Made by a program: the position numbers and the translations under genes | Notes under the pieces: generated by a model | Databases searched by the model: none | Told to the model about the DNA's origin: nothing | The model's input: only the letters and a program-made list of their open reading frames with translations | Assembly: GCF_008329435.1 (NCBI RefSeq) | Contig: NZ_NPKN01000001.1 | Span: 496,001-560,000, forward strand | Source of the DNA: Rhodanobacter sp. T12-5 | GTDB lineage: Bacteria > Pseudomonadota > Gammaproteobacteria > Xanthomonadales > Rhodanobacteraceae | DNA length: 64,000 bases | Reading direction: 5' to 3' | Shown here: one piece after another, positions 10,043 to 24,298 of the stretch | How positions within the stretch are numbered: the stretch's first letter is position 1 | Layout of the letters: each line of letters starts with the position of its first letter

Positions 10043-13000
10043 TCATTGGGAGGAATGCAAGGCCAGGTCCGCCTTTTCCTGCATCTTGTCCTTGTCGGCC
10101 TCGATAACCTCGTCGGCTCGCGCATCGGGGAGGATGTCCTCCAGGCACCGGATCGGCCGATACAGATAGGCGGCGACGGCACACAAGGCCACCAAGACGC
10201 CCGAAAGCACGAGGATCAGGCCGATACCGCGCCCTGGTCCCATTCCGATGATGCGTCCAAGCACCGGAGCCCATGCGCCTCCCCGTGCCATCAAAGGCTC
10301 GAAGATCCGGTCGGCCAGGGGGCCTGCGCTCAGATAGCCGAGCGGCACCATTGCCTCCATCAGCATGAAGTTGGTGGCCATCACGCGACCCTGCAGTTCG
10401 AGGCCGACCTTCGTCTGCACGGTGGAAACCCAATGGGCGTTGACCAGCGCCAAGGCAAAGCCGAAGCCGAACATCCCGGTCGCCTGGATCGACATGGCAG
10501 GATCGGTTCCGGCGAATGCGACGCACAACCCGGCGAGCAGGGTGCTTGCCAGAATGCCGTTGATTCGGCGTTGGGTGCCGCCCCAGAGACTCATCAATAC
10601 GCTACCGACGAATATCCCGGCTCCATTCGAGGCCATGACGATTCCCAATGACTCCGGGCTGCCCGAAACCAGCACGAGCGGAGTAATCAGGGATTCGACG
10701 AGCCCAACGAAGTAGTTTGCGATGGTGACCATCACGATCATGGCGACGAGGCTGTGGCGCTTGATGATGTAATGCCAGCCTCCGATCATTTCCTTGAAGA
10801 AGGGTTCCTCGCGCCGCCCGAACAGGCTGTCGGGAAGGTGGACAGACAGGAGCGTCGAGACGGCGATCAGGAAGGTCACGAAGTCGATCAGCACGATGCC
10901 GGGAAGGCCGATCAATCCGATCAGGGCCCCTGCCAAGGCAGGACCGATGAAGGTGCCCATGCCGGCACCCAACTGCACGAACCCGTTGGCCCTGCCGTAA
11001 TACCGCTTCGGCACGATCTGGGTGATCATGGACGCATAGGCAGGCAGCCGGAAGGCGTTCGCCACGGCGGTAAGCCCGGCCAGGACATAGACATGCCCGA
11101 TCTCCAGGCTGCCGGTCAGGATCAGGATCGCCGCGGATACCGTGGAAAACCCGGCAAGGCAGTTGCTTGCGACCATGATCTTCTTCCTGTCGATCCGGTC
11201 GGCGAGCGTTCCTGCCACCGGGGCAAGCGCGATTGCCGGCAGGATGATGAAGACCATCATCATGGCGTAGCTCGAAACGAGTCCCGTCTGCTGATAGACC
11301 CACACCCCCAGCGCGAACGAAGTCAAGGTGCTGCCGACCACCGAGATGATCTCGCCGATCGCGACGGTCAGGAAGGTCGCCAGGCTCGGTCTGGCGGTCG
11401 CCTTCCCGGTCCGGGCGGGCGCTTCCTGGGGTTGCGGCTCATCTGCGGCAGGCAGCGCCAGGGGCTCGTCGCGCGAGCAGGCAACCCCATCCTCGATGAT
11501 CTTCGCAAGATCGCCGGGCTGATGCTTGATGAAATAGTGCCCGGCCTTCGGGACGATCGCGAAATCGACGCGATCGCTGAAGTATTCCCACTCGCGGTAG
11601 CGTTCCTGGTACAGCTCGGTGGCGCGGTCCATCTCCCCGATGACGCTGGTCAGGGGCGTCTTGAGTTTCTGGAAGGGAGCGCCGTACAGCTCGGTGTAGA
11701 AATCCTCGATTTCCTGGTGTTCGCGCACGAAATTCGCCATCACGAAATCCTGCTGTTCGTTGTCGGTGACTTCGTCGAAGAAGCCGAAGGACTTGAGGAT
11801 GTCGAAGGCGGAACGCTGGGAGGCCCACTTGTGGATCGGGAGTACCTTGCGGAAAAACGCGAATACTTTCCCGGGCAGGTGGGGCGTCGGGAAGTGGCCG
11901 CCGATGAATAGTCTCGAGATGTCGACGCCCGATTTCTCCAGCTCGGCCGCGATGGCGATCGTCAATGCACCACCCGCGCAATGGCCGTAGATCGCGATCG
12001 GTCCGGTCACGTCGCGACGGATTTCCTCGGCGCACCGCCGGGCGATCTCGTCGATGGGCAGGGGTTTCTCTTCGCGTCGACCGAAATCGTGCCCGGGCAA
12101 CTCCAGGCCGAGCACCGTGCAGCCCCGTGGCATCTCCCTGGCCAGAGCCTGATACGAGATCGGCCCGCCGGCGGGGAAGGGTACGCAGATGAGCGTGAGT
12201 GTCTTTTCTTCCGCGGGTATGGGGCGGGTGAGTTCGTGGAGCAGGCCTTCCTGTTTCGTTCTTCCTCCCGAGACCCTTTCGGCGAGCTGCCGAACGGTCG
12301 GGTACTTGAACAGCTCCGTCACGCCGATGCCGCCGATCCGGGCGACAACGCGGAAGGCCTTGAAGGATTCCCCTCCGAGGTCGAAGAAGTTGTCGTTGAT
12401 GCCGATGTCCGCGATACCGAGAACGTCGGCCCATATTTCGGCGATACGCATCTCGTGCTCGTTGCGCGGCGCCACGAAATCCGATTCTGCGCGGATCGGC
12501 GCCAGGTCGGGAGCGGGCAGTGCGCGTTGATCGAGCTTTCCACTGGACAGTAACGGCAGGGCTTCCATCCCGACGAATGCCATCGGAACCATGTATTTCG
12601 GCAAGCGCGCGAACAGATGGGTCCTGAGCGATTCCGCGCTGAAGTCCTGCGACCCGACGTAATACGCAACGAGCGTTTTGTCCCCGGGCGTGTCCTCGCG
12701 CGCAATCACGACGGCTTCCCGAATCCCCGGGTGCTCCGTCAGCCGGGTCTCGATCTCTCCGAGTTCGATGCGGAATCCACGGATCTTCACCTGGTGATCG
12801 TTGCGTCCGAGGAACTCGATGTTCCCGTCCGGCATCCAGCGTGCGAGATCGCCCGTTTTGTACATCCGGGCACCCGGCCTTGCGCAGAACGGATCTTCCA
12901 CGAACCGTTCCGCGGTCAACTCGGGGCGGTTCACATAGCCGCGTGCCAGGCCCGCGCCGGCTATGTGGAGTTCGCCCGCCACTCCCACCGGCACCGGCTG

Positions 13001-24298: not shown

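What the first reader, a model, noticed from the sequence alone, without database searches (positions are those of the whole stretch)
10043..24298. Peptide synthetase, release domain and MFS exporter in one polypeptide
Seen: one uninterrupted minus-strand frame encodes four NRPS modules, a thioesterase and then a full MFS domain with motif A (GTLADRIDRKKIM), with no stop or new start between TE and MFS. Known: exporters are usually separate genes beside the synthetase. Inference: tethering puts the assembly line at the inner membrane and may hand the released peptide straight to its own exporter. I have seen database names for NRPS/MFS proteins, so the layout may not be unique, but I cannot say that any product is known.
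Basis: partly seen in the sequence, partly recalled or inferred. Interest (0 to 1): 0.8.

Follow-up and report, generated by a model that had tools for sequence, protein, structure and literature searches.

The report
Peptide assembly line fused to exporter
A giant bacterial enzyme that appears to build a four-residue peptide carries what looks like its own membrane exporter at its tail, and this release-and-export tail, with an unusual cysteine-type release domain, is found in distantly related bacteria.

Summary
One minus-strand frame (10043-24298, TTG start after a conserved AAGGAG) encodes 4751 aa: half C-A-T, three C-A-T modules, thioesterase (TE) and a 12-peak MFS domain. No stop interrupts it, and no ATG, GTG or TTG lies in frame in the 80 codons before the first MFS helix. 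D. kyungheensis has the same protein, linker kept in frame. Three new points. (1) Six relatives (Rhodanobacteraceae, Embleya, Streptomyces clavuligerus) carry TE-MFS in one frame; the seven fused MFS domains group together (86/99). (2) All seven TEs have a cysteine nucleophile and a late aspartate; the closest solved sequence is the beta-lactone-forming ObiF1. (3) Here T4-TE-MFS resembles that group while C4-A4 belong to this gene's own modules, so the tail behaves as an exchangeable block. Best reading: a membrane-anchored synthetase whose fused MFS exports the peptide its TE releases. Direct hand-off is plausible, untested. Six searches found no description of a bacterial NRPS-MFS fusion, but one paper's table lists TE-MFS for fungal polyketide synthases. 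New variant of a known kind.

The parts
10043..24298 (-). NRPS-TE-MFS gene, 4751 aa from TTG 24298
   Evidence: ORF; start and AAGGAG align in D. kyungheensis
24305..24310 (-). Shine-Dalgarno-like AAGGAG, 6 nt before TTG
   Evidence: sequence, conserved
23537..24283 (-). C-terminal half of a Condensation domain, no HHxxxDG; probably vestigial in the initiation module
   Evidence: weaker constraint, pN/pS 0.48
21986..23488 (-). A1 (approximate limits), signature DVFYLGGVFK, Met-like
   Evidence: substrate by PMC12283262
21731..21928 (-). T1 carrier domain (GGNS), approximate
20360..21676 (-). C2
18827..20299 (-). A2, signature DSALIAEVWK, His-like
   Evidence: PMC12283262
18563..18757 (-). T2 (GGHS), approximate
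17198..18514 (-). C3
15686..17152 (-). A3 (approximate limits), signature DAFLVGAVAK, substrate unassigned
   Evidence: no paper hit
15440..15631 (-). T3 (GGHS)
14060..15379 (-). C4, 62-65% identical to C2 and C3, 38% to the terminal C of G103
12506..14008 (-). A4 (approximate limits), same signature as A1; groups with A1-A3 of this gene
12269..12439 (-). T4 (GGES), approximate; short form shared with the terminal T of G103/G094 (47%)
11483..12253 (-). Thioesterase, ObiF1-like
11978..11980 (-). TE nucleophile Cys (GHCAGG)
   Evidence: invariant in 7 of 7 fused TEs
11627..11629 (-). TE Asp at the ObiF/RifR-like position (VIGEMD)
   Evidence: alignment to ObiF1, invariant in 7 of 7
11537..11539 (-). 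TE catalytic His (AGHY)
11390..11482 (-). TE-MFS linker, no stop and no canonical in-frame start
10169..11389 (-). MFS exporter domain, 12 hydropathy peaks, DHA3 / 2A0121-like
11174..11212 (-). MFS motif A GTLADRIDRKKIM
   Evidence: sequence
9976..10014 (-). strong hairpin just after the stop; possible terminator, without a clear U run
   Evidence: z -4.87

Best explanation
A type I NRPS that is its own membrane-bound exporter. Modules 1-4 build a tetrapeptide (signatures suggest Met-His-X-Met, tentative). The last carrier passes it to a cysteine-nucleophile TE, which releases it at the cytoplasmic face; the covalently attached H+-antiporter-type MFS exports it. The tail T-TE-MFS is an old fusion, probably of one origin, that has been joined to different upstream modules and has probably crossed phyla. 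Shown: one frame, domain order, in-frame conservation, grouping of the seven fused MFS domains, invariant Cys/Asp/His, block exchange. Inferred: one translated protein, export of the cognate peptide, membrane tethering, transfer between phyla. Not shown: direct hand-off from TE to MFS, and the product.
For: One frame and no usable internal start; frame kept in D. kyungheensis with one 3-nt indel and purifying selection; six fused relatives; fused MFS domains on one side of a branch, 86/99, 89% of 200 bootstrap trees; TE catalytic residues invariant in 7 of 7; ObiF1 closest solved TE, E 1e-31 against 1e-14 for the next; 12 hydropathy peaks, N-in; exporter family; unfused MFS relatives directly follow NRPS, NRPS/PKS or condensation-domain genes in Trichormus, two Nostoc, Streptomyces NBC_01136 and the G435 locus; two ACPS-family (PPTase) hits in the genome.
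Against: No expression, protein or metabolite data. The structure prediction failed (mean pLDDT 38), so nothing is known of TE-MFS geometry. The linker is less conserved than TE and MFS (pN/pS 0.47), which argues for a flexible tether rather than a precise channel. The TE tree alone gives only 77/83, 68% of bootstrap trees and 61 of 500 shuffles as low for the fused group. Unlike the window gene, all six fused relatives have some in-frame start codon within the 80 codons before TM1. T domains of three of the fused relatives are barely closer to T4 than the gene's own.
Confidence: 0.72

Rival explanations
1. The MFS is made or used as a separate protein, by internal initiation or by proteolytic cleavage in the variable linker, so the fusion only fixes a 1:1 ratio.
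For: The linker is variable (pN/pS 0.47 and 0.52 in two species pairs); all six fused relatives have some in-frame start codon within the 80 codons before TM1; close MFS relatives are separate genes.
Against: The window gene has no ATG, GTG or TTG in the 80 codons before TM1. No stop or frameshift between TE and MFS in 7 of 7 fused copies.
Confidence: 0.12
2. The MFS serves only as a membrane anchor or as general self-protection and does not export this peptide.
For: The profile relatives include drug efflux pumps (Mef, Tet(V), Tap). A transporter needed for NRPS assembly beyond transport is known for CesCD (PMC7527721, abstract and section 12 read).
Against: Motif A and 12 hydropathy peaks are present and the domain is under purifying selection; the nearest relatives by identity are NRPS-associated.
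Confidence: 0.12
3. The TE makes a strained or reactive product (beta-lactone or similar), and the fused pump removes it at once.
For: Cys nucleophile with the late Asp, as in ObiF and SulM; at the place of ObiF1 Gly1173, where ordinary TEs hold Asp, 6 of 7 fused TEs have Gly and one has Ala (register by my count).
Against: The last A domain here reads Met-like, with no beta-hydroxyl; four relatives read Asp-like, one Ser-like. No hydroxylase or transaldolase family turned up among the neighbour ORFs scanned (not all neighbours were scanned, none in Embleya). Type II proofreading TEs share the late Asp (PMC11298585).
Confidence: 0.15
4. The peptide is a metal binder (Met-His-X-Met suggests copper) and the MFS is a metallophore exporter.
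For: A1/A4 Met and A2 His signatures; EntS among the profile relatives; in D. kyungheensis a kinase with a CusS sensor domain and an RND pump lie nearby.
Against: Signatures only; residue 3 unassigned; no TonB receptor among the window ORFs scanned; best upstream Fur-like match 13 of 19 positions (coding control 10, D. kyungheensis 12), which decides nothing.
Confidence: 0.1
5. Assembly or annotation artefact.
For: None found.
Against: The same junction is present in independent genomes.
Confidence: 0.01

Closest known systems
Type I NRPS with terminal TE
   Same: C-A-T modules and TE; best PDB sequence matches are linear gramicidin synthase LgrA and other NRPSs
   Different: ends in a full MFS; half C domain at the start
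ObiF1 and SulM thioesterases (obafluorin, sulfazecin)
   Same: Cys-Asp-His triad with late Asp; ObiF1 is the best solved match
   Different: a term search found no MFS or transporter in the SulM paper and no transporter in the ObiF1 paper; last residue here is not predicted to carry a beta nucleophile; His-Cys-Ala, not SulM's Gln-Cys-Asn
epsilon-poly-L-lysine synthetase Pls
   Same: membrane-bound NRPS-like enzyme described as synthesizing and excreting its product (PMC8117764, passages)
   Different: six TM segments between three tandem domains, no TE, no condensation domains; no MFS in the domain list seen
CesCD transporter tethering the cereulide NRPS
   Same: transporter holds the NRPS at the membrane and is needed for synthesis (PMC7527721)
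   Different: ABC transporter in trans; non-covalent
Fungal polyketide synthases listed as KS-AT-ACP-ACP-TE-MFS (Verticillium dahliae, V. longisporum)
   Same: TE followed by MFS in one predicted protein (PMC9495618, one table passage)
   Different: polyketide, fungal, a table entry; relatedness to this TE or MFS not tested
MFS / acyltransferase fusions (NCBIfam PRK08633, acyl-[ACP]--phospholipid O-acyltransferase)
   Same: an MFS in one chain with enzyme domains; weak match of this MFS to its first 380 positions. That its enzyme part includes an AMP-binding domain is recalled
   Different: phospholipid metabolism, no NRPS or TE
Stand-alone NRPS-neighbour MFS proteins (Trichormus, Nostoc, G435-type loci, G138)
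   Same: 36-43% identical MFS beside NRPS genes
   Different: separate gene; no TE similar to this one in those loci at E 1e-8

Membership tests
Type I nonribosomal peptide synthetase | repeated C-A-T modules with carrier serine motif and intact HHxxxDG in elongation C domains | tested here: met
   4 A, 4 T (GGNS/GGHS/GGHS/GGES), 3 HHIVSDG; first C domain lacks it
Type I (cis) thioesterase | TE domain fused after the last T with a nucleophile-Asp-His triad | tested here: met
ObiF/SulM-like cysteine TE | Cys nucleophile and Asp at position II instead of position I | tested here: met
   alignment to ObiF1; invariant in 7 of 7; position I is Gly here, Gly in 6 of 7 and Ala in 1. By sequence only; no structure
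Beta-lactone-forming TE | makes a four-membered ring from a beta-hydroxy terminal residue | tested here: inconclusive
   terminal A reads Met-like; no chemistry testable
Beta-lactam-forming TE (SulM) | Gln-Cys-Asn motif | tested here: not met
   motif here is His-Cys-Ala
MFS, DHA3 / 2A0121 H+ antiporter branch | 12 helices, motif A, profile match | tested here: inconclusive
   12 hydropathy peaks; MFS_1 over its cut-off; TIGR00900 199 bits, below its cut-off 319.6: related, not a curated member
epsilon-PL synthetase (Pls) | A-T, six TM, three tandem domains, no TE | tested here: not met
Coupled synthesis-export machine | product passes from TE to transporter without release to the cytosol | not testable with these tools
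   needs biochemistry

The most novel reading that the evidence does not exclude
T-TE-MFS is a transferable release-and-export machine: the cysteine TE holds the finished peptide as an acyl-enzyme and lets go of it (perhaps as a strained or reactive product) next to the cytoplasmic mouth of its own MFS, so that product never builds up in the cell. Bacteria have joined this block to unrelated assembly lines, including across phyla.
Probability: 0.2. Interest if true: 0.85.

Novelty: new variant of a known kind. Interest (0 to 1): 0.57.

Why it matters
Whether assembly lines pass products directly to exporters is hard to test because the parts are normally separate. Here release domain and exporter are one chain, they appear as one evolutionary unit on different modules, and relatives have the MFS as a separate gene, which gives a natural comparison. 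If it works, T-TE-MFS could be a portable tail for engineered NRPSs that export their product. The cysteine TE, invariant in the seven fused copies, also points to unusual release chemistry.

Tried and rejected
Artefact: rejected, because the same junction occurs in independent genomes. Separate MFS by internal start: no start in the 80 codons before TM1 in the window gene. Beta-lactone release as the main reading: not adopted, because the last signature is Met-like. Metallophore: only signatures and weak neighbourhood hints. Structure of TE-MFS: AlphaFold2 with two sequences gave mean pLDDT 38; not used, and no fold search was run. The TE tree gave weak support (77/83) with long outgroups.

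A possible same-genus relative was checked: G033 has 54 residues 52% identical to the MFS start at a contig end; the frame there holds no TE and other genes lie upstream, so it looks like a separate MFS cut by the contig end.

Papers: six searches for an NRPS-MFS fusion showed none by title and start of abstract; one search listed 20 of 117 papers, searches returned none. Most listed papers were not opened. Of the nine hits I looked at passages of four: PMC9495618 lists TE-MFS for two fungal polyketide synthases, PMC11057048 gives a fungal hybrid string with Te-MFS that seems to describe a cluster, and PMC6985275 and PMC3924187 are not about fusions of this kind. The library holds open-licence PubMed Central papers only. 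Because of the fungal entries I lowered interest from 0.6 to 0.57. Phage and E. coli collections gave no match.

My first reading of the A3 signature (DAFLLSAVAK) was shifted by one position and is corrected to DAFLVGAVAK. The code rows printed at the end are wrong in two columns; the codes quoted are read by hand from the alignments. Position 517 (K) was assumed, not read. PheA anchor positions are recalled.

Full report
What is there. The frame 10043-24340 on the minus strand is open for 4765 codons. The start at TTG 24298 is better: AAGGAG lies 6 nt before it and the stretch aligns with the D. kyungheensis gene, AAGGAG and TTG included. Pfam gives four A, four T and four C hits, TE and MFS. 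The first C domain is a C-terminal half without HHxxxDG. It diverges faster between the two species (pN/pS 0.48, 54% identical) than A1 (0.25) or TE (0.18), which fits a vestige in an initiation module. The four C, four A and four T hits leave no evident room for epimerization domains, but I ran no search specific to them. A strong hairpin without a clear U run follows the stop codon.

One protein. Between TE and MFS about 31 codons run without a stop. No ATG, GTG or TTG is in frame in the 80 codons before TM1; the first is a GTG 16 codons into it. D. kyungheensis has the same layout in a 4796-aa frame, 78% identical over TE-MFS. The linker differs by one 3-nt indel there and has pN/pS 0.47, against 0.18 (TE) and 0.26 (MFS). 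Another pair of relatives, G103 and G094, shows the same pattern (linker 0.52, TE 0.10, MFS 0.12). The junction therefore looks translated, with a flexible linker. A simple hydropathy scan gives 12 peaks; charges (K+R 25 in even-numbered loops, 4 in odd ones) put the N terminus, and so the TE, in the cytoplasm.

Distribution. In the same genus 0 of 44 other genomes have TE and MFS together; 37 of the 44 have some match at E <= 0.001, to the MFS part or the TE part alone. One of these, in G033, is a 54-residue piece 52% identical to the MFS start at a contig end, with no TE before it. An order sample of 398 gave 11 with a match, 3 spanning TE and MFS, the other 8 MFS only. A class sample of 369 gave one other genome, MFS only. 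A phylum sample of 398 gave only the window genome. Samples overlap, and the order, class and phylum searches used E <= 1e-40. Among 72,556 plasmid records 21 matched; 5 cover at least 80% of the query: two Embleya megaplasmids and three S. clavuligerus records. Three of these five loci were fetched (two Embleya, one S. clavuligerus), and all three hold TE and MFS in one frame. Pfam was run on two of the three.

One origin. In a tree of 25 MFS domains the seven fused ones are one side of a branch (86/99; 89% of 200 bootstrap trees; 0 of 500 label shuffles as low). This rests on 25 rows that I chose. An Embleya copy sits with the G103/G094 copies (92/90), which suggests transfer between Actinomycetota and Gammaproteobacteria. 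The nearest unfused relatives by identity are NRPS-neighbour MFS genes: Trichormus and two Nostoc plasmids, and six loci of family f2 (G435, G442, G450, G456, G460, G477), where the MFS lies in another frame than the long high-GC3 frame before it. In G435, the one of the six scanned with Pfam, the MFS follows a C-A-T-reductase gene and precedes an MbtH gene. These loci show no TE similar to this one at E 1e-8; the only TE hit outside the fused set was a weak one in the Streptomyces NBC_01136 locus. In the TE tree the fused group is weakly supported (77/83; 61 of 500 shuffles as low).

The tail is a block. T4 of the window gene is 47% identical to the terminal T of G103/G094 and 33-35% to its own T1-T3, and shares a short form with them. 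TE is 43% identical to G103 and MFS 47%. C4 and A4 are native: C4 is 62-65% identical to C2/C3 against 38% to G103, and A4 is 62/51/57% identical to A1/A2/A3 against 45% to G103. In the A-domain tree (quick method, 23 rows) own A1-A4 with their D. kyungheensis counterparts form one group (92), while terminal A of G103, G094, one Embleya and S. clavuligerus form another (96); the terminal A domains of the seven fused proteins need three changes of label, at least two of them forced by starred branches. So a breakpoint lies between A4 and T4. The first Embleya copy shares the short T form but only 38% identity; the second Embleya and S. clavuligerus have 37% and 33% and the long form, so there the shared unit is TE-MFS. 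Which side moved cannot be told.

The thioesterase. All seven fused TEs have Cys as nucleophile (YGHC), Asp in G-x-x-D after a late strand, and (A/G)GH; in the second Embleya and S. clavuligerus one extra residue follows the Cys before the Gly. The best solved match is ObiF1 (E 1e-31; next 1e-14), whose catalytic Cys, Asp and His align with these (I matched the published numbers by the spacing of 30 between Asp and His). ObiF1 makes a beta-lactone and its Asp sits in the RifR-like place (PMC6668435, section 9 read); SulM, a beta-lactam former, shares this, and both group with type II proofreading TEs (PMC11298585, section 9 read). Here the last A signature reads Met-like, which offers no beta nucleophile, so four-membered ring formation is not inferred.

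Product. Signatures by hand: A1 and A4 DVFYLGGVFK, A2 DSALIAEVWK, A3 DAFLVGAVAK (anchors recalled). D. kyungheensis differs by one position in A1 and one in A3. A survey of signatures assigns the first to Met and the second to His, possibly hydroxylated (PMC12283262, passages and section 10); its tables were not seen. Met-His-X-Met is a lead, not a result. Terminal signatures of relatives begin DLTK or DFTK and resemble the Asp/Asn code DLTKVGHVGK of the same paper in G103, G094, one Embleya and S. clavuligerus; the other Embleya reads DVWHVSLVDK, Ser-like by recall.

Exporter family. The MFS matches TIGR00900 (H+ antiporter, 199 bits, below its cut-off), Mef macrolide pumps and EntS. No solved structure matched it by sequence at E 0.01. 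No NCBIfam model among the 14 hits of the TE-MFS piece describes an NRPS-MFS fusion.

Setting. The gene stands between glmS (7958-9787) and manC/rml genes (25297 onward). Of seven same-genus genomes fetched (of 18 others with a glmS hit), three have glmS and manC matches 73-197 bp apart, one has 4.5 kb of other DNA between them, and three have no manC in the roughly 8 kb fetched after glmS. This supports acquisition at a variable site. Two ACPS-family (PPTase) hits and a second NRPS locus with a separate MFS gene are elsewhere in the genome.

What is known. Tethering of an NRPS by a transporter in trans is published for cereulide (PMC7527721, abstract and section 12), and a membrane NRPS-like enzyme described as synthesizing and excreting its product is Pls (PMC8117764, passages). 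A review of unusual NRPSs holds neither 'MFS' nor 'transporter' (PMC8949500, term search in the text). TE-MFS appears in a table of fungal polyketide synthases (PMC9495618, passage).

Noticed in passing
7958-10042 and 24299-25297; L047, L049, L050, L053: The 3' side of glmS is a variable insertion site: glmS-manC are 73-197 bp apart in three relatives, 4.5 kb apart with other DNA in L047 (the glmS end GGTGGAATAA is repeated at both edges there), and hold this NRPS gene in the window. It resembles Tn7-type targeting (recalled); no transposase was looked for.
   Followed up: partly
24700-25000 (-): A broken AraC-type regulator fragment (reading interrupted) seems to lie upstream of the NRPS gene; recognised by eye, no profile was run.
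   Followed up: no
G000:C16:8425-25385 (L052 part): The same genome has a second NRPS locus (2184- and 2475-aa frames) followed by a separate MFS (495-aa frame) and an ACPS-family hit: a natural unfused comparison.
   Followed up: partly
L037:2363-2600: In G138 an NRPS ends in A-T-TE, and a 36%-identical MFS follows as a separate gene after a stop and about 0.2 kb.
   Followed up: partly
L013:16352-21760: Downstream of the D. kyungheensis homologue lie a histidine kinase with a CusS sensor domain and an AcrB-type RND pump; possible metal link, untested.
   Followed up: no
L030:13330-17706: A Tn3-family transposase and an integrase gene lie next to the G094 TE-MFS cluster, consistent with mobility.
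   Followed up: no
L055:1-423 (G033): A same-genus genome has the start of an MFS 52% identical over 54 residues at a contig end, without a TE before it: perhaps an unfused close relative.
   Followed up: partly
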